27,953 bases of DNA, taken from NCBI GenBank assembly GCA_043809745.1, contig JBDROU010000093.1, positions 1-27,953 of the forward strand, given 5' to 3'. Made by a program: the position numbers and the translations under genes. Origin of the DNA: JBDROU01 sp043809745 [NCBI: bacterium]. GTDB taxonomy: Bacteria > Elusimicrobiota > JBDRMW01. Of this stretch, positions 226 to 27,953 are shown piece after piece. Every line of letters begins with the position of its first letter. The stretch's first letter is position 1. Below the pieces are notes generated by a model. The model was not told the DNA's origin. It saw only the letters and a list, made by a program, of their open reading frames with translations, and did no database searches.

Positions 226-276
226 TATATAAAGGCATATTGATGCGCTGACTTCTGCTTTAATAAAGTGAATTTT

Positions 277-3063
277 ATGTTAAAAAATAGCGGTTATTGT
301 AAAAATGTCTCGGGATTTAGCCTTATAGAGGTTGTTGTGAGTTTGGTACTATTAGCTATAATAATGTTAGGCTATGTTGTCGTTACAAAGGTTGTATCCG
401 AGAGCTCGGTATTCAATAAAGCGAAGACTAATGCCATGAATATGGCAGAGCGGGAAATAGAGGATTTGATTTCAATCAAGAACTATGCCCTTTTAAAAGT
501 TTCAACCGCAACTCTGACCATCCCGGAATCAGGTTATTCTTCGTATATCTATGATCCAAGCCTAGCAAAGATATCGTATTCATACGGCAAACGATTCAAG
601 ATTTACCCTTTGATAGAAAGGATCGACATGACTACACGCGAACGAGCTGCTGATCAGACTCAAGATACTGGAATCAAGCGATTATCAGCGCACATATTCT
701 GGGAAGACGGGAAAAAATTGAGGCATTATTTCTCAAGTGTTATAGTGGAAAATCCGCACAATGTGACATGCGGGACAATAAACGGCAATATAGTGGATAC
801 CGTTACAACTAATCCGGTGGCCGGCGTACGCGTATCTATAAAGAATCAGCCCTTCAGCGAAGCATATTCAGATAACCTGGGTGATTATGTAATAGAATGT
901 GAATCGGGTGAGGTTGACTTGATAGCAGAGCGCAGGGGATATATCAAAAATACAATTGAAAATATTGATGTGCAATCAGCTTCTTCAGTTATCCAGGATA
1001 TCCAGCTTACCCCAATCGGAAGCGGCATTGCTGAAGGCCCTTCTCCGTATATACCTGTGCCTGATCATCTTGTAATATCCGCAATATACTATGAGGTTTA
1101 TGAAGATCCAGCAGTGGACGACAAACCCATAAAATACAATATAGACGTTGTCGAGCTTTTTAATCCTACACCTGACCCGGTACAGCTTTATAGCGCTGGA
1201 ACGCCTCTTTTCACACTAAATGCATTTTATGACGATGGCGCTGGCACTGTAATTAATTATGATTACGTGCTTTCAGGACTTCCTTCAGGTGATGTATTCA
1301 TAGACCCAATGCATTATTTCCTTTTCATGGAAGGACGGAATCCTAGTTTTAATCCTGTTGAGTGGGATAAGAATGTGAGTCCTCCTGTTGCTATTCCTGA
1401 GGCTACTATGGTGTATCATCCACGTGATGAGACAATATCTGAATATTTTTTTCTACCTAACCAAATAGTTGACTTCAGATTCATTTATGATATTGACGGG
1501 AATGGCACAATGGATGAGGTTATTGATTCCGTATTTTTTGATGCAACCTTTTCTTCCTGGCCGGATGATAACTATGATTTCAGGTGGGAGCATTACTTCC
1601 GGAAAGACAGAATCGAAAGAACTGCCCCGCCGTATGGTAGTGTTATTAATGATCCAGATCAAAATCCTATTCCTACAAATTATGCTCGATGTTTAGATGT
1701 TGATGCACCTATAAATTATATTCCTTCACTTGTAAATGATACCACTATAAATTGGACCGGTATGGACTGGCATTCCAGAATTATGCTTAATTACTTTTGG
1801 TTGCATAAGCATTCAGATGGGCCATTTCCCTTCAATTTCATCAATGAAGGAATAACAAAAGGATGGATCAGAATTTTGGACCCGCTGTCAGATCCCGTAA
1901 AAGCAGAGGATTTTCTAACACCAAATTGGAAGATTCCTAATGTTGCTCCTGGAACCTGGAATGTTTATATTATAGGGAGATGCACTACTGATTATTTGTG
2001 GAGGAAAGGGTATTTCAGGAAAAGCACCACCAGCAATTGCAATTTCGAAAATTCGATTATAACAGTGGCTGACGGCCAAACAGACTATGTGCTCAATCCG
2101 GCAGGTAGCGAAGTTGTAGAATATGGGATGGTGGAGCTGTTCGATAGATCTATACTTTGGATAAAAGTAACTGATACGGCCGATGTCCCACTTACGGGGA
2201 TTATAGTCTTGATCCGTTCCAGCGCTGAAGAGCTTCAGGCAAAAACAAGCGCTACCGGAAGGTGCTTTTTCGAAGTTATTAGAGGACAATCATATACTGT
2301 GACAGCAAATCCCGGAAGTTTCGACCCTTTTTACAGTGAAGAAAGCAATACAGTAACATCCGGATCGGCTATAGGTGAAGAGGTAACTGCAAGTACACTG
2401 AAACTGATATGTTCTGATGGATTTTTCGGGTTTGTGAAATCTTATTCAGGCGATCCAATCCCAAATGTAGCTGTAAAGGCATACGATGCAGGAACCACAA
2501 ATGTTCAGGCCACCGCACTAACTGATTCATCAGGCAGATTTGTCATTAAAGGGCTTCCAATCAGCAGTTCATTCGATATTAAGGCAGAGCCGAACTGGAA
2601 CCTTGTGACTGTTATGCCGCAAGTACAAACAGTTCAGTCGCAGTCGAGTATGATAGGTCAAATGCCGAAGGATTTTATCATTCGGGATGCAAGAATTACT
2701 TTCACAGGCAGAATTACCAATGCATCGGGAACGCCGCTCGATACCGGTGTTTTAATAACTGCTTCTTTGGTAAATATCTCGCTTCCCCCTGAAATAAACC
2801 AGGGTGAGTTGGAGTATCTCGGTATACCACAGCCAAATATGGTATATTATCCCACATGTGCCGATGGTGAAGGCAGATTCGAGATCAAGGTAGTATATGA
2901 TCCAGCGCTGGAAGTTGCTGGCTCCATACCTTTTTTTCTTTATGCTTGGCCGATTCCTATTGTAACAGGGGCTAATAACCGGATAGATCCTGATAATCTA
3001 TCAAATCCTTTACAGATTTCTAACAGTGCCAGCGCCATTGAAGTAAATTTTGTGGCAAACTAG
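277..3063 (+). CDS. Very large prepilin-type protein with carboxypeptidase-regulatory-like repeats
   Basis: The N-terminus is a classic type IV prepilin/pseudopilin leader: a basic start, then G13|FSLIE with Glu at +5 of the mature chain, then a hydrophobic helix (VVVSLVLLAIIMLGYVVV). Prepilin peptidase should cleave after G13 and the protein should enter a type II secretion or type IV pilus machine. At about 928 residues it is far larger than usual minor pseudopilins. Beta-rich segments resembling CarboxypepD_reg/CNA-B folds appear near residues 165-245, 627-685, 715-775 and 807 onward (pattern G-x-V...P-x-x-G-V-x-V...T-D-x-x-G-x-F/Y). Residues about 285-400 (VVELFNPTPDPVQLYSAG) resemble a lamin-tail domain. 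I chose ATG 277, preceded by AAAGTGA; GTG 268 in the same frame is an alternative. It is followed by two more pilin-like genes, so it is probably a minor or tip subunit. Confidence 0.75.
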   Translation: MLKNSGYCKNVSGFSLIEVVVSLVLLAIIMLGYVVVTKVVSESSVFNKAKTNAMNMAEREIEDLISIKNYALLKVSTATLTIPESGYSSYIYDPSLAKISYSYGKRFKIYPLIERIDMTTRERAADQTQDTGIKRLSAHIFWEDGKKLRHYFSSVIVENPHNVTCGTINGNIVDTVTTNPVAGVRVSIKNQPFSEAYSDNLGDYVIECESGEVDLIAERRGYIKNTIENIDVQSASSVIQDIQLTPIGSGIAEGPSPYIPVPDHLVISAIYYEVYEDPAVDDKPIKYNIDVVELFNPTPDPVQLYSAGTPLFTLNAFYDDGAGTVINYDYVLSGLPSGDVFIDPMHYFLFMEGRNPSFNPVEWDKNVSPPVAIPEATMVYHPRDETISEYFFLPNQIVDFRFIYDIDGNGTMDEVIDSVFFDATFSSWPDDNYDFRWEHYFRKDRIERTAPPYGSVINDPDQNPIPTNYARCLDVDAPINYIPSLVNDTTINWTGMDWHSRIMLNYFWLHKHSDGPFPFNFINEGITKGWIRILDPLSDPVKAEDFLTPNWKIPNVAPGTWNVYIIGRCTTDYLWRKGYFRKSTTSNCNFENSIITVADGQTDYVLNPAGSEVVEYGMVELFDRSILWIKVTDTADVPLTGIIVLIRSSAEELQAKTSATGRCFFEVIRGQSYTVTANPGSFDPFYSEESNTVTSGSAIGEEVTASTLKLICSDGFFGFVKSYSGDPIPNVAVKAYDAGTTNVQATALTDSSGRFVIKGLPISSSFDIKAEPNWNLVTVMPQVQTVQSQSSMIGQMPKDFIIRDARITFTGRITNASGTPLDTGVLITASLVNISLPPEINQGELEYLGIPQPNMVYYPTCADGEGRFEIKVVYDPALEVAGSIPFFLYAWPIPIVTGANNRIDPDNLSNPLQISNSASAIEVNFVAN

Positions 3064-5417: not shown

Positions 5418-6650
5418 TTAAGCGGTTACAGGAACTTTAATATTCTTAATTTGTGTAGGCAGGCCTACCCTGTTAAGTATCTCTATAAAAGGATCCGGAT
5501 CAAGTTCTTCAACATTCACCATGGTTTTTGAGTCCCATTTGCCTTGCGCCACTAAAACAGCTGCCGCTGCGGGCGGAACGCCTGCCGTGTAGCTGATAGC
5601 CTGGGATTCAACTTCTCTGTAACACTCAGCATGATCGCATGTGTTGTAAATGAAAATTTCTTTATACTGGCCGTCTTTTTCTCCTTTAATAAGGTTGCCT
5701 ATGCAGGTATTGCCGGTATAATTAGGAGCTAATGATGGAGGATCCGGCAAGCATGCCTTGACTACCTTAAGCGGGACTACTTCCAGTCCTTCAGCTGTTT
5801 TCACGGGCTTTTCGGATAAGAGGCCTATGTTCTTCAATACATTAAAGCAGTTTATATAATGATCGCTGAACCCCATCCAGAACCTTATGCTGTTTGCATC
5901 TATGTTCTTAGATAAAGAATGCAATTCATCATGTCCGGTTAAATATACGGGTTGTTTGCCTACAACAGGAAAATCGTATATCCATTTATCCTGGTGGACA
6001 CTTTTTTCAACCCATTTTCTGTCTATCCAGGTCCATACTTTGGAAAACTCTCTGAAGTTAATTTCAGGATCAAAGTTAGTGGCAAAAAATTTGCCATGAT
6101 TGCCCGCGTTTACATCCATAATATCTATGGTGTCTATCTTGTCAAAATGATGCTTTACCGCCAGAGCGCAGTAAGCATTTACTACACCGGGGTCAAAACC
6201 GACGCCGAGAATTGCGGTTATACCTTTTTGTTTGCATTTATCGCGGCGTTTCCATTCATAGTTGCCGTACCAGGGCGGGTCTTCGCAAACCTTATCCGGT
6301 TCCTCATGTATTGCTGTGTCCAGGTACACCGCGCCCGCTTCTATACAGGCTTCCAGTACAGACATATTTATATATGCTGTTCCGAGATTAATGACAATAG
6401 AGGAATTTGTATCTTTTATAAGCTTAACTGTGTCAGATATTTTAAGGGCATCCAATTTTCTTGAGAATACCTTTTTTGATTTATCCTTTATACTTCCTTT
6501 TCTTTTAATACTTTCAATAATTTTATCGCATTTCTCCTGTTTTCTTGAAGCGATGAAAATATCTCCAAGTATATCATTGTTTTGCGCGCACTTATGCGCG
6601 GTGACATGCGCTACTCCTCCAGCGCCAACTATTAATACATTTTTTTTCAC
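5418..6650 (-). CDS. Carboxynorspermidine/carboxyspermidine synthase (saccharopine dehydrogenase family)
   Basis: A 410-residue protein with an N-terminal NAD(P)-binding Rossmann motif (VLIVGAGGVAHVTAHKCAQ, residues ~5-23) and the saccharopine-dehydrogenase-like body (LGVGFDPGVVNAY; AGVPPAAAAVLVAQGKW near the C-terminus) typical of the polyamine branch. The enzyme reductively condenses L-aspartate semialdehyde with putrescine or diaminopropane to carboxyspermidine or carboxynorspermidine in the cytoplasm. It starts at GTG, with a strong GGGGGA Shine-Dalgarno about 7 bases upstream on the minus strand, and lies 11 bases after the nspC stop. The two genes therefore form an operon encoding both steps of the S-adenosylmethionine-decarboxylase-independent spermidine pathway. 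Substrate preference between the C3 and C4 diamine cannot be read from the sequence. Confidence 0.9.
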   Translation of the reverse strand: MKKNVLIVGAGGVAHVTAHKCAQNNDILGDIFIASRKQEKCDKIIESIKRKGSIKDKSKKVFSRKLDALKISDTVKLIKDTNSSIVINLGTAYINMSVLEACIEAGAVYLDTAIHEEPDKVCEDPPWYGNYEWKRRDKCKQKGITAILGVGFDPGVVNAYCALAVKHHFDKIDTIDIMDVNAGNHGKFFATNFDPEINFREFSKVWTWIDRKWVEKSVHQDKWIYDFPVVGKQPVYLTGHDELHSLSKNIDANSIRFWMGFSDHYINCFNVLKNIGLLSEKPVKTAEGLEVVPLKVVKACLPDPPSLAPNYTGNTCIGNLIKGEKDGQYKEIFIYNTCDHAECYREVESQAISYTAGVPPAAAAVLVAQGKWDSKTMVNVEELDPDPFIEILNRVGLPTQIKNIKVPVTA

Positions 6651-6661
6651 CGGCGTCCCCC

Positions 6662-7765
6662 TTATGATAGGCTGTTTATGTAGTCCTTATAAGTAAATTC
6701 TTTTATTATTTCCAATGAATCATCAAGCCTTTTTACAACAATTGACGGCATATTGATTCCGTTGAACCAGTTTTTCTTTACCATTGTATATCCTGCCGCA
6801 TCTGCGATATATATTATGCTACCAATTTGCAATTTAGATTTAAAGTTAAAAATACCAAAAATATCACCGGCAAGACATGATTTGCCGGCAATCATGTAAC
6901 TATTCTTTCCTTTGGAGTCGTTTTTCATCTTAGCCGGAGTTCTGTAAATCAGCAAATCAAGCATATGCGCTTCTATAGAACTGTCTACAATAGCTATGTC
7001 CATTTCGTTATGAACAATGTCAAGTACTTTTGTAACTAAATATGAAGAAGATGTTACAGCTGTTTCGCCCGGTTCAAGATATACCTGAACGTCGAATCTA
7101 TCAGAAAACTCTTTTAATTTATTGGCGAGTTTATCTAATGGAAAACCATCCTTTGTAAAGTAAATCCCGCCGCCCAAACTTACCCATTCCAGTTTTCTTA
7201 ATAATGGGCCGTATTTGCCGGCGATTCTGTCTATGTACGAAAATACCTTTTCTAAATTATCATTCTCGCAATTACAATGGAACATCACGCCGCTTATTTT
7301 ATCCGCAATTTTAAGAACTGCTTTATAATCTTTTTCGCCGAGCCTGGAGTATTTTCTTGCCGGATCCGCTAAATCAAAATCGGAATAACTTATCTGCGGG
7401 TTTATTCTTAATCCGATTTTCTTGCTTTTAACTTTGCTGTAAAATAACTCCAGCTGGGATATAGAGTTGAATATAATCTTTGTCGCAAAACCCTTTAACT
7501 CATCAATATCCTTTCTAGAAAAAGCTACACTGTACGCATGCACTTCTTTGCCGAATTTCTCAAAACCCAGTTTTGCCTCATAAAGTGAGCTGCTTGTAGT
7601 GCCGTCCAGGTACTGTTTCATCAAGTTAAAAACGCTCCAGCTTGAAAAGCATTTAAGCGCAAGCACAGACTTTGCTCCCGAGCAATCCCTTAAATATTTT
7701 ATTCTTTTAAGGTTCTTCAGCAGCAATTTTTCATCTATCAGATAATAAGGTGTTTGCAGTTTCAT
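6662..7765 (-). CDS. nspC: Carboxynorspermidine decarboxylase
   Basis: A 367-residue PLP-dependent fold-III decarboxylase of the alanine-racemase/ornithine-decarboxylase superfamily. Visible residues are the PLP lysine K38 in LALKCFS, His163 in MFHCNCEN, the phosphate-binding LGGG (197-200), EPGE (231-234), Cys297 in IAGKSCLAGD (contributed across the dimer in this family) and the C-terminal ADAAGYTMVKKNWFNG. It decarboxylates carboxynorspermidine or carboxyspermidine to the polyamine. The start ATG MKLQTPYYLI is typical of the family; no strong Shine-Dalgarno is seen. It is the first gene of a minus-strand operon, with a good promoter at 7806-7834. Length and motifs are complete, so it should be active. 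Confidence 0.92.
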   Translation of the reverse strand: MKLQTPYYLIDEKLLLKNLKRIKYLRDCSGAKSVLALKCFSSWSVFNLMKQYLDGTTSSSLYEAKLGFEKFGKEVHAYSVAFSRKDIDELKGFATKIIFNSISQLELFYSKVKSKKIGLRINPQISYSDFDLADPARKYSRLGEKDYKAVLKIADKISGVMFHCNCENDNLEKVFSYIDRIAGKYGPLLRKLEWVSLGGGIYFTKDGFPLDKLANKLKEFSDRFDVQVYLEPGETAVTSSSYLVTKVLDIVHNEMDIAIVDSSIEAHMLDLLIYRTPAKMKNDSKGKNSYMIAGKSCLAGDIFGIFNFKSKLQIGSIIYIADAAGYTMVKKNWFNGINMPSIVVKRLDDSLEIIKEFTYKDYINSLS

Positions 7766-17463: not shown

Positions 17464-18087
17464 ATGAGCAAAAAGGACAGACTTAGTAAGGGATTGTTAA
17501 AACTTAGCGAATTAGCTGAAAAGGCTAATGTAACACTTGGGACCATCAGGCATTATGTTAATTTAGGACTTATTAAGCCAAGTGGTATAACACCCGGCCG
17601 TTTTAGGCTCTTTGACGAGAAGACAACAGTAGACAGGATTATTTATGTCAGAAAACTCGTAGCTGAAGGTAAAGGTTTGGATGAGATAAAGGAGATGGAT
17701 TTAGAGCACCGGCCAGCAAAAGAGATACTCGTAGTTGATGACGATATAGAAGTCAGGGATTTAATAAAAGATTTATTAAAAGATAAGATAGAAGTGAACA
17801 TAAAAACAGCTTTTGATGGTTTTATCGCAGGCAAACTGCTTGGTGAATACGTGCCCGATCTTGTTATACTTGACTTGCACCTTCCGGGCATGGATGGTTT
17901 TAAGGTATGCGAGAATTTAAGAAAAGATCCTCAATTTACCAGGACTAAAGTGCTTGCGATTACAGGATATGCTTCAGAGGAGAGCGAAGAAAAGATTCTT
18001 TTAGCCGGGGCTAACGCATATCTAACCAAACCATTTAATACTAATGAATTATTGCAGGTAATAAAAGAGTTATTAAATATTCATTAA
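17464..18087 (+). CDS. MerR-type DNA-binding domain fused to a response-regulator receiver domain
   Basis: 207 residues in two domains. Residues ~11-80 are a MerR-like winged helix-turn-helix (LLKLSELAEKANVTLGTIRHYVNLGLI, then GRFRLFDEKT, then IYVRKLVAEGKGLDEIKEM). Residues ~87-205 are a CheY-like receiver: acidic pocket D92-D94 (VVDDD), phospho-acceptor D137 (VILDLHLPGMDG), T167 (AITGYA) and K189 (LTKPF). All receiver residues are intact, so phosphorylation by a histidine kinase is expected to control DNA binding. Typical response regulators carry the receiver first; here the DNA-binding domain is N-terminal and of the MerR class. No cognate kinase is in this window. The ATG has no ribosome site and a promoter only 6 bases away. 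Its targets are unknown; the Tol-Pal genes directly downstream are candidates by position only. Confidence 0.9.
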   Translation: MSKKDRLSKGLLKLSELAEKANVTLGTIRHYVNLGLIKPSGITPGRFRLFDEKTTVDRIIYVRKLVAEGKGLDEIKEMDLEHRPAKEILVVDDDIEVRDLIKDLLKDKIEVNIKTAFDGFIAGKLLGEYVPDLVILDLHLPGMDGFKVCENLRKDPQFTRTKVLAITGYASEESEEKILLAGANAYLTKPFNTNELLQVIKELLNIH

Positions 18088-18158: not shown

Positions 18159-18656
18159 ATGCTTAAGAAGATTATGGTTATAGGACTTATGTTAGTGATA
18201 TCAGGAGCGTTTGTTTCATGCGCCAAGAAACAAATTATTCAAGAACCTGAGATTGAAAAAGCTGAAGAGATAGAAGTAGAGGAACCGGCTGTAAGAGGAA
18301 AAGAATTTCAAAATATAGATGAATTAGCTGTTGTAAATTTTGATTATGACAAGTCCGATCTTAGATCGGATGCGCGGGAAATACTAAAAGCAAATGCAGA
18401 ATTTTTGAAAAAGAATACAAATTTAGAAGTGCTTGTTGAAGGGCATTGCGATGAGAGAGGTTCATTAGAGTATAATCTGGCGCTTGGACAGAGAAGGGCT
18501 GCTGTCGTAAGAACGTATTATATTCAGCTGGGTGTTGCGGCTAACAAAATAACTACAATTTCCTACGGTGAAGAGCGTCCGGTTTCTGCAGGAACCTCTG
18601 AATATGCATACTCAAAAAACAGAAGAGCAGAAACCTTAGCCCGCAGTGGATTATAG
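18159..18656 (+). CDS. pal: Peptidoglycan-associated lipoprotein Pal
   Basis: A 165-residue lipoprotein: the signal peptide ends in AFVSC21, with Ala at +2 so outer-membrane sorting is expected. A Glu-rich linker (~28-50) follows, then an OmpA-like peptidoglycan-binding domain (~56-162). The binding motif is VEGHCDERGSLEYNLALGQRRA, split here as GHCDERG (95-101) and YNLALGQRRA (105-114), with Asp98 and Arg113 in the places that hold diaminopimelate. Pal tethers the outer membrane to the cell wall and is relocated to the division site by the Tol complex. AAGGAGG sits 6 bases before the ATG. It is the first gene of its operon, whereas the classical order has pal near the end. Confidence 0.93.
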   Translation: MLKKIMVIGLMLVISGAFVSCAKKQIIQEPEIEKAEEIEVEEPAVRGKEFQNIDELAVVNFDYDKSDLRSDAREILKANAEFLKKNTNLEVLVEGHCDERGSLEYNLALGQRRAAVVRTYYIQLGVAANKITTISYGEERPVSAGTSEYAYSKNRRAETLARSGL

Positions 18657-18690
18657 TCCCCAAGATATTTGTAGACAAAGAATACTCAAA

Positions 18691-19371
18691 ATGAAAAGCC
18701 TATTTCCTATAGGACTTTCTGTCATCTTCTGTTTTTCTATTTCAGGATGTATTACAACTTCTCAATCATACGGTAATCTCCGTTCAGAAATTTCCTCGTT
18801 AAAAAGAACAATCAATCAGATGCAAACCAATCAGGCGGATCTTGTCATTACAATGCAGGAGCTTAATGGCAGCATGATTTCACTTACTGAGAAATTGGAA
18901 GATAATCAGGATAAGATGTCAACGCTTTCTCAGAAATTGGATGATCTGGATGCGAATTTCTCACAGAGGATGGATGATCTTTCTGTTAGATTAAGCGGCC
19001 AAACCCAAAAACAGAAACCCAAACCTTCGCAAATATATGATATCGCGTATAACGATTATTCGCAGGGCCATTACGAGCTTGCTATAGTAGGATTTAGGAA
19101 TTATATTGAAATTTTCCCTAATGGAGAACTGACAGAACAGTCTTTGTATTATTTGGGTGAAAGTTTAGCCATGGCAAAAAAAAATGAGGAAGCTCTGGAA
19201 ACCTTTGAGAGGTTTATAAGATTTTACCCGCGCAGCGAATTTATTCAGGATGCTCAATCAAAATATGATTCGCTCCTGAAAAGTAAAAATAATTCCAAGA
19301 GTCCCCAAAATAATAGCAAGAATAAATCATCCATTGAAATAGTGCCGCCTAAACCAGCTGATAAGGAGTAA
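18691..19371 (+). CDS. cpoB: CpoB/YbgF-like Tol-Pal system lipoprotein with TPR repeats
   Basis: A 226-residue protein. The start ATG 18691 is chosen because it gives a clean lipoprotein signal peptide (MKSLFPIGLSVIFCFSISGC, lipobox ISGC20); an in-frame GTG at 18646, overlapping the pal stop, would add 15 polar residues ahead of it. Residues ~27-105 form a heptad-rich coiled coil with repeated SEKL/QKLDDL patterns, followed by a linker and TPR-like helices (~120-200; YDIAYNDYSQGHYELAIVGF, NYIEIFPNGE, ESLAMAKKNEEALETFERFI). This is the YbgF/CpoB layout, which in other bacteria links Tol energy to peptidoglycan synthesis. Unlike E. coli CpoB, which is soluble, this one should be lipid-anchored. 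It has a Ser/Asn/Lys-rich tail. It lies 34 bases after pal. Confidence 0.85.
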   Translation: MKSLFPIGLSVIFCFSISGCITTSQSYGNLRSEISSLKRTINQMQTNQADLVITMQELNGSMISLTEKLEDNQDKMSTLSQKLDDLDANFSQRMDDLSVRLSGQTQKQKPKPSQIYDIAYNDYSQGHYELAIVGFRNYIEIFPNGELTEQSLYYLGESLAMAKKNEEALETFERFIRFYPRSEFIQDAQSKYDSLLKSKNNSKSPQNNSKNKSSIEIVPPKPADKE

Positions 19372-19404
19372 ATAATCGGGGTCGGCAGGCGATCCCATAA
19401 AGCA

Positions 19405-19986
19405 ATGGATAAAACCTTTAAGATTTCTCTTCAGATTTCAATCGCATTTCACGCTCTTCTTCTGATCAGTTTTTCGGTAAAGCAAACAAAAATAATAAAA
19501 GTGCCTCTGTATGTTGATCTCGTTCGATACGAACCAAAAGTAGAAAAGAAAGAAAAGAAAAAAAAGGAAGATGTTGCGCTAAAAGAAGTTAAGAAGAAGG
19601 AAAAAGAAGAGGCAATCCCAAAAGAGACCGTAATTGAGGAATCGAAAAAGATACAGCCGGAGCCGATGGCAGCCCAGGCAACTTCAAAAATAATGCTTGA
19701 GGATGAAAACTTCCCGTTTCCTTATTATCTTAAGGTGCTCCAAAACAGGATTGCTGCAAGGTGGAGGTGGCCTGCCAATACAGGGGTATTAAAAGCTGTA
19801 GCGTATTTTAAGGTTTTAAGGGAAGGAAGAATGACGGATATAAAAATACATGAATCCTCTGGTGATTATCTTTTTGATCAAGCAGCCTTAAGGGCAATTA
19901 ACCTATCCCAGCCTATGCCATCTTTGCCGGAAAGATATACTGAGAATCAGCTTGGTGTTTATTTCGAGTTTAACTTTCATGAATAA
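19405..19986 (+). CDS. tolA: TolA/TonB-like energy-transducing protein
   Basis: 193 residues in the TonB/TolA arrangement. A short cytoplasmic start is followed by one membrane helix (~9-26, LQISIAFHALLLISFSV with the conserved His in the helix) and a Lys/Glu-rich periplasmic spacer (~43-85, KVEKKEKKKKEDVALKEV). The C-terminal domain (~105-193) is TonB_C-like (YLKVLQNRIAARWRWP, then LREGRMTDIKIHESSGD, DQAALRAINLSQPMPSLP). It should span inner membrane to outer-membrane partners, taking energy from a TolQ-type motor. I call it TolA by its place between cpoB and tolB; the domain itself is TonB-type, so TonB is the alternative. The spacer is short compared with proteobacterial TolA. Its stop overlaps the tolB start by 8 bases, indicating coupling. 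Confidence 0.8.
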   Translation: MDKTFKISLQISIAFHALLLISFSVKQTKIIKVPLYVDLVRYEPKVEKKEKKKKEDVALKEVKKKEKEEAIPKETVIEESKKIQPEPMAAQATSKIMLEDENFPFPYYLKVLQNRIAARWRWPANTGVLKAVAYFKVLREGRMTDIKIHESSGDYLFDQAALRAINLSQPMPSLPERYTENQLGVYFEFNFHE

Positions 19987-21253
19987 ATTATTCTTTTTAA
20001 TCGTCATTTTCTTGTGTTTTATAGGTATTAATGCTGATTCCGCTGATGTGTATCTCGGTATAGAATCAAGAGGGGAAAAGATTGACCTAGGCATAAGTCA
20101 GATTCAGGCCAGGAATGATCTGGAAATAGAACATACTGTTGGCGAAGAATTAAGGCAGATAATTATGAACGATCTTTTATTCAGCTTATATTTTAATGTT
20201 GTAGAAAGTGATGAACCCTTATTTGTTGAAGGTGTAATAAATTTTGAATCGTGGGTTAAGTCATCATCAGATGTGCTACTGGTTCCATATATTTCTTTGG
20301 AGCATAATTTTATAGGGGTACAGCTTAAAGCTTACGATGTCAGCGGTAAAACGCTGATATGGACAAAAAACTTTTATTCCAGCAAACGGGAGTTAAGAAA
20401 GCTGGCGCATATAGTTTCGGATGAGATTGTACTGCGTTTTACCGGGGAAAAAGGCATTGCCCAAAGTAAAATAGCATTTATAAACGACTCTACGGGTAAT
20501 AAGGAGTTATATATTACAGATTATGACGGTAGGAACATAAAAAGGTTAACTTATAATAAATCAATAGCGCTCTTCCCAAAATGGTCGCCTGATAATGAGA
20601 GTATTTGTTTTACTTCATACCATCATGGCAACCCTGATCTTTTTATTATAAGTTCTGATGGTGTAATCTTAAAATCTATCTCGACGAGGCATGGATTGAA
20701 CGCTGCGGCGCAGTGGGCTCCGGATGGGGAATCACTAGCATTAACACTTTCAATAGGCCGAAGCCCGGACATTTATCAGATAGACCTTCAAGGTAAAATA
20801 ATAAAGCAGCTTACCAGCGGATGGGGAGCAGAGATCTCTCCGTGTTTTTCGCCTGACGGCAAACAGATAGTATTTACATCTGATAAACCGGGATTCCCTC
20901 AGCTTTATACGATTCGTATTGATCAAAATTTGGAACACAGGCTTTTCTCAGGGAAATATTCAGACTCCGCCGCATGGTCTCCCAAAGGGGATTCAATAGC
21001 ATTCTCAATGTTTAATAAGTATGGGAAATTCGATATATTTACCGTTAATACCAACGGCAGGTCTTTAAGACAGCTTACTCAAGATGCTCAAAAGAATGAA
21101 AATCCTTCTTGGTCCCCGGATGGTAGATTTATAGTATTTGCATCAAACAGAAACGGTGAGTACGAACTCTTTATGATGTCGCAGGATGGAAGCAGGCAAA
21201 AGAGAGTATTCAAGGTAAAAGGCAACTGCTTTACACCTGACTGGGGCAACTAG
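19979..21253 (+). CDS. tolB: Tol-Pal system beta-propeller protein TolB
   Basis: 424 residues from ATG 19979, which overlaps the end of tolA by 8 bases and opens a signal peptide (MNKLFFLIVIFLCFIGINA). An in-frame GTG at 19952 would bury the signal peptide. The N-terminal domain (~22-150) matches TolB's (DVYLGIES..., LRQIIMNDLLFSLYFNVVES, YISLEHNFIGVQLKAYDVSG). Then comes a six-bladed propeller of PD40/WD40-like repeats (~155-424) with repeating KWSPDNESICFTS, QWAPDGESLALT, CFSPDGKQIVFTSD, AWSPKGDSIAFS, SWSPDGRFIVFASNRNG. TolB sits in the periplasm, binds Pal and is displaced by TolA. Complete length and all repeats suggest a functional protein. It is the last gene before the separate tolQ promoter. 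Confidence 0.93.
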   Translation: MNKLFFLIVIFLCFIGINADSADVYLGIESRGEKIDLGISQIQARNDLEIEHTVGEELRQIIMNDLLFSLYFNVVESDEPLFVEGVINFESWVKSSSDVLLVPYISLEHNFIGVQLKAYDVSGKTLIWTKNFYSSKRELRKLAHIVSDEIVLRFTGEKGIAQSKIAFINDSTGNKELYITDYDGRNIKRLTYNKSIALFPKWSPDNESICFTSYHHGNPDLFIISSDGVILKSISTRHGLNAAAQWAPDGESLALTLSIGRSPDIYQIDLQGKIIKQLTSGWGAEISPCFSPDGKQIVFTSDKPGFPQLYTIRIDQNLEHRLFSGKYSDSAAWSPKGDSIAFSMFNKYGKFDIFTVNTNGRSLRQLTQDAQKNENPSWSPDGRFIVFASNRNGEYELFMMSQDGSRQKRVFKVKGNCFTPDWGN

Positions 21254-21257
21254 GGGC

Positions 21258-21286
21258 TTGGTTTAAATCTGATATTTTAATATAAT
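21258..21286 (+). promoter_or_regulatory. Sigma70-type promoter for tolQ and downstream genes
   Basis: TTGGTT (21258-21263), 17 bases, perfect TATAAT (21281-21286). It starts 4 bases after the tolB stop and 34 bases before the tolQ ATG, so tolQ can be expressed apart from the pal operon. Confidence 0.6.
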
Positions 21287-21319
21287 AGTTGGATCTTGCA
21301 GTAGTTTTAGGGGGGAACG

Positions 21320-21925
21320 ATGTGGCAGTATTTTCTTAAAGGCGGATTCATGATGTGGCCGCTTTTTGCTTGTTCTGTAATTTCATTGGCAATTATTATT
21401 GAAAGATTTTTCTATTTCCGAAAATTGGCCAGACTTGATCAAGAATTCTTAGAAAGCTTGAGCAAGCATCTGCATGGAGGAGCTATAGCAGAGGCTACGG
21501 CTGCCTGCACCAAGTTTGCTACCCCGCTGGCTTTAGTCCTTCGTTCCGGATTAGAGAAACTTTCGCAGGGGAAAGAAGCAATTAAAATTTCTATAGAAGA
21601 ATCCAGCATGAACCATACAACAAAGTTGGAGAAATATCTGCCGTTTCTGGCTGCTATAGCTTCAGTTTCAACGCTGATGGGTTTTACAGGAACGGTGCTA
21701 GGCATGATTAAAGCATTCGGATCAATTGCCCGGGAAGGTGTATCATCCCCTGCAATAGTGGCTTCCGGTATTGGAGAAGCGTTAATAACCACAGCGACGG
21801 GATTGCTTATAGCTATCCCCACAGTAATTGCATATCACTACTTCAATTATCGCGTAGATAATGAGTACAGGATTATAGAAAGCTACAGCAACGATATAGC
21901 GAATATTAACTATTCTAACCAGTAA
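21320..21925 (+). CDS. tolQ: TolQ/ExbB/MotA-family proton channel protein
   Basis: 201 residues with three membrane helices (~10-30, ~108-132, ~145-172) and the family pattern: YFLKGGFMMWPLFACSVISLAIIIERF at the start (helix 1), LMGFTGTVLGMIKAF (~119-133) and ASGIGEALITTATGLLIAIPTVIAYHYF (~147-174). These helices form the proton-driven stator with TolR or ExbD. TAGGGGGGAAC precedes ATG 21320. The partner gene tolR/exbD, which normally follows, is not here: the next gene, 22 bases on, encodes a HEAT-repeat protein. Position near tolB/tolA suggests TolQ; ExbB with a separate ExbD pair cannot be excluded. Confidence 0.88.
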   Translation: MWQYFLKGGFMMWPLFACSVISLAIIIERFFYFRKLARLDQEFLESLSKHLHGGAIAEATAACTKFATPLALVLRSGLEKLSQGKEAIKISIEESSMNHTTKLEKYLPFLAAIASVSTLMGFTGTVLGMIKAFGSIAREGVSSPAIVASGIGEALITTATGLLIAIPTVIAYHYFNYRVDNEYRIIESYSNDIANINYSNQ

Positions 21926-23753: not shown

Positions 23754-24425
23754 GTGCCGTCAATAAAAAGAAAATTAATCAAAAATTATAATATTTTACT
23801 TAAACATTTTGGCCCCCAGTATTGGTGGCCCGGTGATTCGGATTGGGAGATAATGATCGGCGCTGTATTGACGCAAAATACAGCATGGAGCAATGTCAGC
23901 AAAGCAATAGAAAACCTCAAAAAAGCCAGATCCTTAAATTTTAATAAATTCATAAACCTTCCAAAAAAAGAACTTGAAACACTTATCAGACCTGCCGGAT
24001 ACTTTAGACAGAAATCAAAATACCTGAAAATACTGGCTAATCATATTAAATCTAAATATAAAGGCAGTTTAGAGCTATTGTTTAACAAGAATTTGATTGA
24101 TTTAAGAATAGAGTTGCTTAATATCAAGGGTATAGGTGAAGAGACAGCCGACTCAATAATACTTTATGCCGGTAAAAAGCCTATATTTGTAGTAGATGCT
24201 TATACAAAACGTATTTTGCAGAGATGGGGTATAAAAATTAGTAAAAAATATAGCGGGATTCAGCATTTATTCCACAAAAATCTTCCTAAAAATGTTAAGT
24301 TATTTAATGAATATCATGCTCTCTTAGTAGCCCTTGGCAAATTCTTCTGTAAGCCGAAACCCATCTGTAAAGCCTGCCCGATAAAAAGCTGTACATATAT
24401 AAAGCAAAATTTGTATAATAAGTAG
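23754..24425 (+). CDS. Endonuclease III-superfamily DNA glycosylase (MagIII-like)
   Basis: 223 residues from GTG 23754, supported by AGAGG about 7 bases upstream and by lying after the argF stop; longer in-frame starts run into argF. The helix-hairpin-helix LLNIKGIGEETADSIILYAG (121-140) is followed by catalytic Asp148 in VVDAYTKRI. Four cysteines C199, C205, C208 and C213 (C-x5-C-x2-C-x4-C) look like a slightly shortened iron-sulfur loop (E. coli Nth: x6, x2, x5). The lyase lysine of endonuclease III is Glu130 here (GIGEETA), so it is expected to be a monofunctional glycosylase. WWPGDSDWEIMIGAVLTQNT and RPAGYFRQKSK strongly recall Helicobacter MagIII, a 3-methyladenine glycosylase. The substrate is therefore probably alkylated purine, but that is inference. 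Confidence 0.85.
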   Translation: MPSIKRKLIKNYNILLKHFGPQYWWPGDSDWEIMIGAVLTQNTAWSNVSKAIENLKKARSLNFNKFINLPKKELETLIRPAGYFRQKSKYLKILANHIKSKYKGSLELLFNKNLIDLRIELLNIKGIGEETADSIILYAGKKPIFVVDAYTKRILQRWGIKISKKYSGIQHLFHKNLPKNVKLFNEYHALLVALGKFFCKPKPICKACPIKSCTYIKQNLYNK

Positions 24426-24454
24426 TAAGTTTTAGACTTAAGTTATTATTGTAG

Positions 24455-24490
24455 GCCGAGCGGATATTGTATTTGCTTGGCTGTTTTTTT
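24455..24490 (+). terminator. Rho-independent terminator after the DNA glycosylase
   Basis: GCCGAGC (24455-24461) pairs with GCTTGGC (24475-24481) over 7 base pairs including one G-U, with a 13-base loop and then TGTTTTTTT (24482-24490). It ends the tolQ-HEAT-argF-glycosylase unit only 22 bases before the next start codon. Confidence 0.7.
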
Positions 24491-24512
24491 GTACTCTTTG
24501 TACGCATGATCT

Positions 24513-27500
24513 ATGGATAATTCGGAACAAAGGAAACATATTAGGATAGCTTTAGGGGATATAGTTGAATATAACTCCCCTTCAGAATCATTCAAGACCA
24601 GGGTTCTGGATATCAGCTATAAAGGGATGCAGTTGGAATCTACCATTCCATTTGTTTCCGGTAAAGATGCGACAGTAATCTTAAGCCCGCCCCATTTGAA
24701 TTACTCTTTAAGAATTCCCTGCAGATTTCTCCATGGAAGGAAAAACAGTCCTGAAAGCTTAACAGGCGTATTTGCCATAGAGTTCGTTCATCATAACCAG
24801 GAACAAAAGAGGGTAATTGAGAATTTTGTTAAAATGATGAAGGAAAAAGCTATAACCCAGAACTTTGAAACTGAAGAGAGCCGAGAATCCCCACGAATTG
24901 ATTGTATTATAACTCCAAACAAGAAGAGACTTGGGAAACTAACAGTAAAAAGTATTGAGAACATATCCCAAAAAGGTCTTTTCTTAAGATTCGAAGGTAA
25001 TATACTAATCTCATCCAAAATCCCACTAAAATTTTCACTGCCAAATGATAAAAGAGCCATAGATGCAAAAGGAAAGATAGTATATATTACTGATTTAGAA
25101 CATAACGGTAAGGGGGATATCAAAGGCGCAGGAATTAGTTTCGATTCTATTTCGGTAACAGATAAACAGCGAATAGAGAATTTTGTGCTTCGTCAGGTAT
25201 CTAACCTGTCATTCAGAAAATTTCACCAAAGCATTTATCAGAGCGATGATAAAAATGGATTTTCTTTTATTGATAAGGAAAAAATACGTTCTATTGTGTT
25301 AAACGCAGTACAAGATAAGCTTTTTGCAAACATACTGCTTGAAAAAAGCCTGCGCAGCTGCCAGGCGCAATTTGCTGAGCTGCACAGCAGCTTCTTTTCA
25401 GTATACAGGCCGCAAGATTTAGCTGATTGCATAATAATACCAAAGGAAATAGCATATTTTTCCTTTAATTACGGAAGGGGTAGTTTCTATTTTCAATGCC
25501 CGGTAGTTCAATCTACAGATAACTCAATAGTATTCCAAATACCGGAAATTATCAATCATTCCGAAAAGCGCTCAATTGACAGGGATGTATTAAAAAATCC
25601 GGAGCCCATTATTGTTGAGATAGCTGCACTGCAGCAATCCGATGCTCAGATAGTTAAGGGTGAGGTTATTGATGTAAGTTCCACAGGTTTTTCATTTAAG
25701 GTTCAAGAAAGCCCTATAAACAGGCAGATATTCGCCCCCGGAGTTTCAATTCAAAAAATAACTCAAAAACCGATAATTTTGAACGGGATGTATGACTCAG
25801 GCGAGGTCAAACATATATCATCTTTTAAATCAGAAACTAATGGAAATTTCATTAAAGTAGGTGTTGAAACAGGAATAAATAGAAAAGAATGCCTATTTAG
25901 GTCTATTACTGCTCAGGAATGGGAGAGCGAATCGTTCTTTGATTCATCGCTTAGTAAAAATTCAGCAAAAGCGGGACATCTGGATGAGAAATCATTTGTT
26001 AAACAACTAATCAAGTTCAAGAATAAAAAAGGGCAAGATATAGTGGCTTTTATTGATGCCACAAGATTGAGGGTAAAAGCTCCTGTTATAGTTTTGCCGC
26101 CAGCATTCGGTAAAAAGAAGGAAACTGTAAGCCCTTTGGTGCTTACGCTACTGGCAAACTTCAAAGCGGTGGGCAAAGATCTTGTTATTGTCCGATACGA
26201 CGGAATTAACAGGCCCGGGGAAAGTTTTAAAGACGAAAGATACAACCGCAAAGGTTGGGAGATGTTAGACTATACCATGACCCAGGGCACGGAAGACTTA
26301 TTAACTGTACTGGAACACTGCGATAACAATCCTTACTTTAATCCTTCCGATAAAATAATTATCTCATGCAGCCTCTCTTCGTTAAAAGCAAGAAAAATAT
26401 TGAGCAGCGGCAAAGACCTAAAAGTTGGATACTGGCTGAACCTAATGGGTATTGCCGACGGCCAAGCAGCTTTCCGTAATATCTCAGGCGGCCTGGATAT
26501 AGTAGGTAATTACAGAATGGGTGTTTTTAACGGTATCTCAGCTATTTTAGGTCATCTGGTAGACCTGGATAAAATAGCAAAGGATATGGTTGAGCATAAC
26601 TATGCATTTATTTCGGATGCCAGAAAAGAGTTTGCGAAGATCAAGACTCCGCTTTCCTGGATATACGGAAAATATGACAGCTGGATCAACCATCCGGATA
26701 TTAAAGATGTTATGACTATTGATTCTGGAGGTTCGCGGGAGCTCATAGAAATACCTACAGGCCATAATTTAAGGACTAGCAAAGATGCGTTCAAGGCATT
26801 TAGGATAATTACTTATAATATTTACTGTTATTTATTTAACGAACCTATATATCCTCAGGAGCCTAACCAAGATACAATAATCAAGGTGCTTTCCGAGGAA
26901 AGGGAACGAATAGCTCACAAAGAAGAGATAGATTTATACGACTACTGGCGCACATACCTGCTGGGGTCAAACGAACAGAGCTTCGGTTATGATTTTTTGA
27001 AGAATTTACGTGAATTCAGGGATTTTTTAACCTTTCAGGAAAGCTTATTAAATATAAATGATGCTCAGACTGTTGCGGATTTAGGATGCGGTACCGGTAT
27101 TTTTATGGAAAACTACCTGAACAATTTCATTAAGAACCGTAAAAAATTTAAGGTACTGCCAAAATTAGTTTTAGTGGATTTTATTAAAGAAGCGTTAGAT
27201 AAAGCAAACCTCAAATACCTGAACTATAAACGCAGAGTGGCAAACGGCCTGCCGCAGGTGGAATTTAAGAATGTTAATCTGGCTGTTAATAGGCTTCTCC
27301 CTGTTAAAAGATTTATTGACGGTAAATACAGTTCATTTTCAGAGCTTAAGAACAGAATTGAGGGTTTTCCTTGCGTGGTAATCGATAAAATTTGCAAGAA
27401 GTATAATCTTAATTTAGAAAAGATACTTAAGGGTAAGTTAGTTAACAAGAATGATATTGCCCGGTTAAAAAGGCGTTTCAGCCAAAATGAAATTGAATAT

Positions 27501-27953
27501 ATATTGGAATTCAACAGAGCGTCCCGTTTTATCCTTAGAAGGCTCAGAAAAGATGATTTTGAAAAACTTTCTCTTGCACAGCAGTTTAAGAGAAAGAAAT
27601 ACAGAAATGTAAAGACGTCTGATTTAATCTTTAACAAGCTTAAATTTTATGATTCTGATTTATCCATGAAGCTTCCTTTTAAGGATAAAAGCTTTGACAA
27701 AATATTGGCCGGCCTTTTAATCTCCTATCTGTTAAATCCGGATGAAAATCTATCCGAATTCCACCGCATACTTAAGCCGGGAGGGAAAATAGTAGTTTCT
27801 ACTATGAAGCCTGATGCGGATATCTCAACAATTTTCACCCAATATATAGATAAAGTAAAAAGATCGGATTTGGAAGATACGGAGATAAAGGACAAAGAAG
27901 AAAATCTTGCGGGAGCAAGATCTATGCTAAATGAAGTAGCAAGTCTCTTCGAA
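24513..27953 (+). CDS. Triple-PilZ / LuxD-like alpha/beta-hydrolase / SAM-methyltransferase fusion protein (3' end outside window)
   Basis: An uninterrupted frame of 1147 codons still open at the window edge. A TGA at 24507-24509 makes ATG 24513 the first possible start; no Shine-Dalgarno is seen. Three PilZ-type regions each have both c-di-GMP motifs: R7-R11 with D33ISYKG; R124-R128 with N150ISQKG; R353-R357 with D387VSSTG. The stretch before the third (YFSFNYGRGSFYFQCPVV) resembles a YcgR N-domain. Residues ~495-780 are an alpha/beta hydrolase resembling LuxD acyl-transferase/thioesterase: IVLPPAFGK, IVRYDGINRPGES, nucleophile Ser620 in ISCSLSS, Asp722 in YGKYDSW, His751 in TGHNL. Residues ~845 to the end are a class I SAM methyltransferase: VADLGCGTG (854-862), acidic D889, then a ~140-residue basic insert before LPFKDKSFDKIL (1054) and HRILKPGGKIVVST. 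It is probably a cytoplasmic, c-di-GMP-controlled acyl or lipid-modifying enzyme; the substrate is unknown. Confidence 0.85.
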   Translation, partial: MDNSEQRKHIRIALGDIVEYNSPSESFKTRVLDISYKGMQLESTIPFVSGKDATVILSPPHLNYSLRIPCRFLHGRKNSPESLTGVFAIEFVHHNQEQKRVIENFVKMMKEKAITQNFETEESRESPRIDCIITPNKKRLGKLTVKSIENISQKGLFLRFEGNILISSKIPLKFSLPNDKRAIDAKGKIVYITDLEHNGKGDIKGAGISFDSISVTDKQRIENFVLRQVSNLSFRKFHQSIYQSDDKNGFSFIDKEKIRSIVLNAVQDKLFANILLEKSLRSCQAQFAELHSSFFSVYRPQDLADCIIIPKEIAYFSFNYGRGSFYFQCPVVQSTDNSIVFQIPEIINHSEKRSIDRDVLKNPEPIIVEIAALQQSDAQIVKGEVIDVSSTGFSFKVQESPINRQIFAPGVSIQKITQKPIILNGMYDSGEVKHISSFKSETNGNFIKVGVETGINRKECLFRSITAQEWESESFFDSSLSKNSAKAGHLDEKSFVKQLIKFKNKKGQDIVAFIDATRLRVKAPVIVLPPAFGKKKETVSPLVLTLLANFKAVGKDLVIVRYDGINRPGESFKDERYNRKGWEMLDYTMTQGTEDLLTVLEHCDNNPYFNPSDKIIISCSLSSLKARKILSSGKDLKVGYWLNLMGIADGQAAFRNISGGLDIVGNYRMGVFNGISAILGHLVDLDKIAKDMVEHNYAFISDARKEFAKIKTPLSWIYGKYDSWINHPDIKDVMTIDSGGSRELIEIPTGHNLRTSKDAFKAFRIITYNIYCYLFNEPIYPQEPNQDTIIKVLSEERERIAHKEEIDLYDYWRTYLLGSNEQSFGYDFLKNLREFRDFLTFQESLLNINDAQTVADLGCGTGIFMENYLNNFIKNRKKFKVLPKLVLVDFIKEALDKANLKYLNYKRRVANGLPQVEFKNVNLAVNRLLPVKRFIDGKYSSFSELKNRIEGFPCVVIDKICKKYNLNLEKILKGKLVNKNDIARLKRRFSQNEIEYILEFNRASRFILRRLRKDDFEKLSLAQQFKRKKYRNVKTSDLIFNKLKFYDSDLSMKLPFKDKSFDKILAGLLISYLLNPDENLSEFHRILKPGGKIVVSTMKPDADISTIFTQYIDKVKRSDLEDTEIKDKEENLAGARSMLNEVASLFE

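What the first reader, a model, noticed from the sequence alone, without database searches (positions are those of the whole stretch)
24513..27953. Single-chain fusion of three c-di-GMP-type PilZ regions, a LuxD-like acyl hydrolase and a SAM methyltransferase
I know of no described protein with this order. Seen directly: three RxxxR + (D/N)xSxxG pairs (R7/R11+D33-G38; R124/R128+N150-G155; R353/R357+D387-G392), a Ser620-Asp722-His751 triad spaced as in alpha/beta hydrolases, and a SAM motif at 854-862. Known: these PilZ motifs bind c-di-GMP, and LuxD transfers or hydrolyses fatty acyl groups from acyl-ACP through a Ser in an A-x-S-x-S elbow, like the S-C-S-L-S here. Inference: c-di-GMP gates release or transfer of an acyl product that the methyltransferase then modifies, possibly making a lipid signal or surface lipid in step with motility or biofilm state.
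Basis: partly seen in the sequence, partly recalled or inferred. Interest (0 to 1): 0.88.

Follow-up and report, generated by a model that had tools for sequence, protein, structure and literature searches.

The report
c-di-GMP-sensor, acyl-hydrolase, methyltransferase fusion protein
One bacterial gene appears to join a sensor for the signal molecule c-di-GMP to two enzymes, a LuxD-like acyl hydrolase and a methyltransferase, in one protein; sensor-enzyme fusions are known, but I met no other with these two enzymes in the limited data I could search, and its activity is untested.

Summary
One uninterrupted frame of at least 1147 codons (24513 to the window end; 3' end not seen) carries every motif where stated. 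Two PilZ domains are clear (Pfam 38.6 and 47.5 bits). The third is degenerate: below Pfam's cut-off, but supported by its motif pair and by similarity to a Desulfobacterota PilZ family. Residues 486-790 match only LuxD-type entries, all below threshold; Asp722 and His751 fall on LuxD's Asp and His, and Ser620 on its serine in one alignment (Ser623 in others). The methyltransferase is real and carries a large insert. Codon usage supports one gene.

I found no other protein with this order, but reach was thin: the window's genome is not held, and only Desulfobacterota, probably another phylum, could be searched by whole genomes. PilZ domains ahead of an enzyme-sized domain are not unique: 32 of 297 Desulfobacterota genomes match such a protein. 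PilZ control of a methyltransferase between two proteins is published (MapZ-CheR1).

c-di-GMP gating, the substrate and lipid methylation are inference. Structure predictions failed (mean pLDDT 33.4 and 30.9). Verdict: new variant of a known kind, moderately interesting.

The parts
24513..27953 (+). single open frame, at least 1147 codons, running off the window
   Evidence: coding codon usage along its length
24525..24830 (+). PilZ domain 1 (residues 5-106; R7xxxR11, D33xSxxG38)
   Evidence: Pfam PF07238 38.6 bits; motifs
24879..25190 (+). PilZ domain 2 (residues 123-226; R124xxxR128, N150xSxxG155)
   Evidence: Pfam PF07238 47.5 bits; motifs
25569..25865 (+). degenerate PilZ domain 3 (about residues 353-451; R353xxxR357, D387xSxxG392)
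   Evidence: 12.8 bits in Pfam, below cut-off; 28% identity, E 0.005 to the PilZ region of L020; 15.0 bits against a 21-sequence family profile, best of 200 shuffles 4.0 bits
25968..26882 (+). LuxD-like alpha/beta hydrolase region (residues 486-790)
26370..26372 (+). Ser620, likely nucleophile (S-C-S-L-S)
   Evidence: falls on residue 114 of 1tht (counted along the printed alignment); the registers put Ser623 on the LuxD serine instead
26676..26678 (+). Asp722, likely triad acid
   Evidence: falls on residue 211 of 1tht; same column as a LuxD Asp
26763..26765 (+). His751, likely triad base
   Evidence: same column as a LuxD His
27045..27842 (+). class I SAM-dependent methyltransferase (about residues 845-1110)
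   Evidence: Methyltransf_11 48.9 bits and other families; motif I VADLGCGTG 854-862 and later motifs
27225..27617 (+). roughly 130-150 residue insert inside the methyltransferase (about residues 905-1035, limits approximate)
   Evidence: PF13489 profile positions 19-123 are spread over protein residues 847-1102
24454..24492 (+). terminator-like hairpin with T-run between the upstream endonuclease III-like gene and this gene
   Evidence: 1 found, 0.8 expected by chance

Best explanation
A c-di-GMP effector enzyme. An N-terminal array of PilZ domains (two canonical, one degenerate) binds c-di-GMP. The resulting rearrangement or localisation controls two catalytic modules in the same chain: a LuxD-like Ser-Asp-His acyl hydrolase (thioesterase or acyltransferase) and a class I SAM methyltransferase, most likely acting on one small acyl- or lipid-type substrate. 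Shown: the domains, their motifs and the single frame. Inferred: c-di-GMP binding, control in cis, both activities, and the shared substrate.
For: Two PilZ domains above cut-off with both c-di-GMP motifs, a third pair beyond chance. The hydrolase region's only matches in Pfam, NCBIfam and the PDB are LuxD-type; it scores z 6.7 against a plasmid-borne LuxD with 0 of 2,000 shuffles as high, and keeps the Asp and His columns. Methyltransferase significant, with motif I, the acidic end of strand 2 (D889), FDKIL and GGKIVVST all present. One coding frame. [quoted passage not shown] a PilZ-PrsW protease fusion in Leptospira (passage of PMC12943098); the GNAT-family c-di-GMP effector HfsK (passages of PMC5362036); PilZ plus a large C-terminal domain matched in 32 of 297 Desulfobacterota genomes, the query's own included.
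Against: No relative was found, so no conservation of residues or of the fusion supports function. LuxD similarity is below every curated cut-off and only 16% identity. A yardstick against it: long repeat proteins that are not hydrolases by my reading score 81-91 over about 70 residues of the same region, more than LuxD's 67, though they were picked from hundreds of genomes and do not keep Asp722 or His751. The nucleophile register is ambiguous. Structure predictions without homologues were useless (mean pLDDT 33.4 and 30.9). The ten other window proteins scanned include no fatty-acid, lux or c-di-GMP turnover gene. The protein's end is not in the window.
Confidence: 0.42

Rival explanations
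1. The PilZ array mainly positions or multimerises the enzymes, or has lost regulation; the fusion is a constitutive two-enzyme protein whose PilZ domains bind c-di-GMP weakly or not at all.
For: The third PilZ is degenerate. In three members of the Desulfobacterota PilZ family looked at (L020, L053, L054), the PilZ has DxSxxG but no RxxxR 18-45 residues before it, so such proteins can lose half of the motif.
Against: PilZ 1 and 2 keep both halves of the c-di-GMP motif at a spacing of 26 residues, which is hard to explain without selection for binding.
Confidence: 0.25
2. Writer and eraser in one chain: the methyltransferase makes a carboxyl methyl ester and the hydrolase removes it (as BioC/BioH or CheR/CheB do on separate chains), with c-di-GMP choosing the direction.
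For: A class I methyltransferase and a likely serine hydrolase occur in one protein; weak methyltransferase hits include BioC (33.3 bits, cut-off 184.95); c-di-GMP control of a chemoreceptor methyltransferase through PilZ is published. BioC/BioH and CheR/CheB roles are recalled.
Against: The hydrolase's only matches are LuxD-type and no methylesterase family appeared; the methyltransferase is far below the BioC cut-off, and no CheR family is listed.
Confidence: 0.1
3. The two enzyme domains serve unrelated reactions or a natural-product step; PilZ control concerns only one of them.
For: None of the ten other window proteins scanned points to a common pathway. The methyltransferase is generic by sequence.
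Against: Fusion in one chain usually reflects a shared process (general inference).
Confidence: 0.18
4. Assembly or frameshift chimera of separate genes.
For: Only one contig is available and no relative shows the same order.
Against: Coding codon usage stays in the same forward frame in all 20 blocks, across the joins, and there is no stop in 1147 codons (chance about 9e-39 from base composition). An in-frame join of two genes would not be excluded by this.
Confidence: 0.04

Closest known systems
MapZ-CheR1 of Pseudomonas aeruginosa
   Same: A PilZ protein controls a methyltransferase with c-di-GMP (passages of PMC6370697).
   Different: There it acts between two proteins and the methyltransferase modifies chemoreceptors; here the methyltransferase is in the same chain, matches general class I families and is far below the UbiE and BioC cut-offs.
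LuxD (PDB 1tht; PF02273 Acyl_transf_2)
   Same: Collinear over 210 alignment columns; Asp and His columns shared; elbow S-C-S-L-S resembles A-x-S-x-S.
   Different: Below Pfam and NCBIfam cut-offs; the LuxD compared is a stand-alone protein of 307 residues; no luxC or luxE gene among the window proteins scanned.
Desulfobacterota PilZ proteins with an unassigned C-terminal domain (L020, L068 and relatives)
   Same: PilZ followed by a C-terminal domain of some 330 residues; Pfam finds PilZ in the three scanned (L020, L061, L068), in two stretches in L068. P0001 362-451 aligns with the L020 PilZ domain.
   Different: The C-terminal domain is not related to either enzyme here by its profile (P0001 is not among the eight best rows) and has no credible Pfam or PDB match.
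HfsK of Caulobacter crescentus
   Same: An enzyme-family protein reported as a c-di-GMP effector (passages of PMC5362036).
   Different: GNAT family; no PilZ domain is ascribed to it in the passages seen.
PilZ-PrsW fusion LIC_20173 of Leptospira
   Same: PilZ fused to a hydrolytic enzyme (passage of PMC12943098).
   Different: A protease, predicted active by its authors, not an acyl hydrolase.

Membership tests
PilZ domain (PF07238) | profile match over cut-off, RxxxR and [DN]xSxxG | tested here: met
   domains 1 and 2: 38.6 and 47.5 bits against 22.5, both motifs
PilZ domain (PF07238), third copy | profile match over cut-off | tested here: not met
   12.8 bits; other support: motif pair, family profile, E 0.005 to L020 PilZ
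c-di-GMP receptor | binding of c-di-GMP | not testable with these tools
   motifs only
LuxD / Acyl_transf_2 (PF02273) | profile match over cut-off | tested here: not met
   14.1 bits against 20.3; NCBIfam LuxD 12.7 against 420
LuxD / Acyl_transf_2 (PF02273) | Ser-Asp-His triad in order with the A-x-S-x-S-type elbow | tested here: inconclusive
   Asp and His align, Asp and Ser620 align; the Ser shifts by three; no usable structure
Class I SAM methyltransferase (Methyltransf_11 and relatives) | profile match over cut-off and SAM motif I | tested here: met
   48.9 bits against 21.2; VADLGCGTG 854-862
UbiE or BioC methyltransferases | equivalog score over cut-off | tested here: not met
   UbiE model NF001244 40.2 of 216 bits, BioC TIGR02072 33.3 of 184.95 bits

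The most novel reading that the evidence does not exclude
A previously undescribed class of single-chain c-di-GMP effector in which the second messenger directly switches acyl release and methylation of the same substrate, so that a methylated lipid or fatty-acid product is made in step with c-di-GMP level.
Probability: 0.2. Interest if true: 0.75.

Novelty: new variant of a known kind. Interest (0 to 1): 0.5.

Why it matters
A 2025 review (passages of PMC12564702 seen) names PilZ domains linked to uncharacterised or poorly defined domains as attractive candidates for new c-di-GMP receptors; the words hydrolase, thioesterase and acyltransferase have 0 occurrences in its main text. A PilZ array on an acyl hydrolase and a methyltransferase would put lipid or acyl metabolism under direct c-di-GMP control, and can be tested with one purified protein.

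Tried and rejected
Generic alpha/beta hydrolase: PF02273 is the only Pfam family listed for residues 486-790, even at E up to 10 (HMMER's filters drop most weak matches). Relatives: no relative of the fusion by 8-residue patterns in genome contigs (71 stretches matched, 1 kept, a 65-residue methyltransferase match) or viral contigs (10 stretches, none kept); no match in plasmids at E 1e-5. In Desulfobacterota, residues 440-845 gave 1 of 395 genomes, residues 800-1002 gave 0 of 247, and residues 233-790 gave 11 of 297 at E up to 0.05, none over more than 107 residues. Three of these eleven (G177, which is also the hit, G224 and G201) hit the same stretch, residues 700-769, in long repeat proteins related to one another; they have other residues in place of Asp722 and His751, and the one whose frame I read (G177) looks like an extracellular fibronectin-type protein. 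I take them as chance, although their raw scores (81-91) exceed LuxD's 67. A fourth, G181, is a 250-residue frame with a gapped match; the other seven were not looked at. These negatives are weak: the window's UvrA is at most 61% identical to full-length matches in 59 Desulfobacterota genomes, which suggests, without proving, another phylum, and I could not identify or reach it. PF02273 in 395 Desulfobacterota genomes: 10 with a match, 9 over the cut-off, frames of 236-300 residues, not fusions; of these ten only L011 scored against the hydrolase region above all 300 shuffles. LuxD-like neighbours of the PilZ family: none of 649 frames in 21 loci matched the hydrolase region at E 0.5; one matched the methyltransferase part (E 0.0043) and one PilZ 1-2. 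LuxD in viral contigs: none. Structure: hydrolase region alone and the third PilZ with the other two as alignment, both unusable; no fold search was run. Literature: PilZ + LuxD + methyltransferase 0 papers; PilZ + methyltransferase domain + fusion + c-di-GMP + domain architecture 0; PilZ domain + methyltransferase domain + cyclic di-GMP 0; PilZ + hydrolase domain + c-di-GMP + architectures 2, listings only; PilZ + thioesterase + cyclic di-GMP 11, 8 listings seen, no title on such a fusion. The library lacks most subscription papers.
Full report
The frame. The + strand frame from ATG at 24513 is open to the window's last base, 1147 codons. Its end and downstream neighbours lie outside the window, and no genome is held for it. 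In 20 blocks along the frame, codon usage learnt from 13 other genes of the window favours this frame over the two other forward frames every time, and over all five others in 19; the exception is the last block, seven codons. A frameshift chimera is therefore unlikely; an in-frame join by misassembly cannot be ruled out from one contig. A terminator-like hairpin with a T-run lies just upstream, at 24454-24492, but one such site is about what chance gives (1 found, mean 0.8), so an own transcription unit is only suggested.

PilZ domains. Pfam scores PilZ at residues 5-106 and 123-226 with 38.6 and 47.5 bits, cut-off 22.5; the region of the third motif pair scores 12.8 bits. Three motif pairs arise in 0 of 20,000 shuffles of the whole protein; at least one pair in residues 233-485 arises in 80 of 20,000. 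The third region aligns with the PilZ domain (31.9 bits in Pfam) of a Desulfobacterota protein, 28% identity, E 0.005 for that single comparison, and scores 15.0 bits against a profile of that PilZ region made from 21 family members, while the best of 200 shuffles scores 4.0. The profile of the preceding region also scores P0001 best (11.8 bits), but one shuffle reaches 8.6, so that part is weak. I take the third PilZ as real but divergent. By eye residues 310-357 resemble the N-terminal domain of YcgR-type proteins; this is recalled and no library hit supports it.

Hydrolase. Residues 486-790 match PF02273 (E 0.028), two NCBIfam LuxD-type models (E 0.031 and 0.059) and PDB 1tht (E 0.017), and nothing else was listed at E up to 10. 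Neither the Pfam nor the NCBIfam match passes its curated cut-off. I compared it with a stand-alone acyl transferase on an E. coli plasmid record, 61% identical to the 1tht stretch and set between acyl-CoA reductase and ligase genes, hence a LuxD; a Photorhabdus origin is recalled. The local score is 67 against 33.8 +/- 5.0 for shuffles, 0 of 2,000 as high; BLASTP E 0.004, 16% identity over 210 columns. Counting along the printed alignment, Ser620 falls on residue 114 and Asp722 on residue 211 of 1tht; that these are LuxD's catalytic residues, with His241, is recalled. In the MAFFT alignment Asp722 and His751 fall on a LuxD Asp and His, but the serine column shifts so that Ser623 meets LuxD's serine. 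I prefer Ser620, because S-C-S-L-S follows the hydrophobic strand KIII directly and fits the LuxD elbow; Ser623 stays possible. As a caution, long repeat proteins of Desulfobacterota score 81-91 over about 70 residues of this region, higher than LuxD; they are related to one another, do not keep Asp722 or His751, and were the best of hundreds of genomes, so I count them as chance.

Methyltransferase. Several class I families match (best 48.9 bits). Motif I (854-862), an aspartate at the end of the second strand (889), FDKIL (1061-1065) and GGKIVVST are present. A large insert separates the first part from the rest: PF13489 covers about 105 profile positions over 256 residues. Scores for named equivalogs such as UbiE and BioC are far below cut-off, so the substrate cannot be told.

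Structure prediction. One job on the hydrolase region alone and one on the third PilZ with two other rows gave mean pLDDT 33.4 and 30.9; I did not search folds with them, and they bear on nothing.

Relatives. The reachable data were poor. The one genome-contig scan relies on exact 8-residue peptides and found no relative of the fusion. The only phylum I could search by whole genomes was Desulfobacterota, which the window's UvrA (at most 61% identity to full-length matches, 59 genomes) suggests is not its own. There the hydrolase region had no credible relative in 395 genomes, and the first part of the methyltransferase none in 247. That a protein of this order is absent elsewhere is therefore not shown.

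A parallel. In the same phylum I met a family of mostly about 700-residue proteins with PilZ and a C-terminal domain of some 330 residues; a search with one of them (L020) matched 32 of 297 genomes, its own included, some matches being partial or at contig ends. Pfam confirmed PilZ in the three I scanned. One relative, L068, is 966 residues long with two Pfam PilZ stretches and motif pairs at 270/303 and 488-492/524, plus RxxxR at 25 and 29. The C-terminal domain gave no Pfam family for the first of 6 members and one chance-level family (E 0.13) for one member, and at best E 0.19 in the PDB. P0001 was not among the eight best rows for its profile, which were all shuffles. In the PilZ search of 118 genomes, whose listing is cut to the best-scoring rows and so omits this family, the longest listed frame was 822 residues, a chemoreceptor-like protein by my reading, and the others 571 or shorter. 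So PilZ placed before an enzyme-sized domain is a recurring plan; this combination of enzymes is the new part.

How it may work. PilZ domains bind c-di-GMP through the motif pairs found here (established knowledge; not tested). Published precedent for a PilZ protein inhibiting a methyltransferase in the presence of c-di-GMP is MapZ-CheR1 (passages of PMC6370697), so control of the methyltransferase, the hydrolase or both in cis is plausible. That the LuxD-like part cleaves acyl thioesters follows from LuxD's role by analogy. That both enzymes share a substrate is inference from the fusion alone.

Verdict. The mechanism is a reasonable guess with no direct support. It is a new variant of PilZ-enzyme fusions as far as seen, interesting mainly because it can be tested with one protein.

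Noticed in passing
L020:1371-3458 (+), L053-L072, L068:7716-10613 (+): A Desulfobacterota protein family with PilZ and an unassigned C-terminal domain of some 330 residues, matched in 32 of 297 genomes, without credible Pfam or PDB match for that domain; by eye the C-terminal part looks GNAT-like, not confirmed.
   Followed up: partly
L057:6497-8797 (-): A frame of 767 codons next to the PilZ-family gene, by eye HD-GYP with a C-terminal PilZ-like end; it matched residues 1-232 of the window protein at E 0.00038.
   Followed up: no
L006, L074, L078 (loci of G177, G224, G201): Mutually related long repeat proteins that match residues 700-769 of the window protein at about 30% identity without its Asp or His; probably chance, not explained further.
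   Followed up: partly
window 268-3063 (+): A 931-residue protein with a type IV pilin-like N-terminus and carboxypeptidase-regulatory-like domains.
   Followed up: no
window 17464-18087 (+): MerR-type DNA-binding domain fused to a response-regulator receiver domain.
   Followed up: no
window 18159-21925 (+): Gene run OmpA/Pal-like, TPR lipoprotein-like, TonB C-terminal, a TolB-like frame (by eye, not scanned) and ExbB/TolQ-like.
   Followed up: no
window 5418-7765 (-): Saccharopine dehydrogenase-type and PLP decarboxylase-type genes side by side, recalled as the carboxynorspermidine pair.
   Followed up: no
window 24390-24492 (+): A promoter-like site (10 of 12, 24390-24419) and a terminator-like hairpin just upstream of the gene; could be an upstream terminator or a leader. 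Promoter-like sites in the stretch scanned: 7 found, 4.1 expected; terminators 1 found, 0.8 expected. No Rfam family in the window at gathering score.
   Followed up: no
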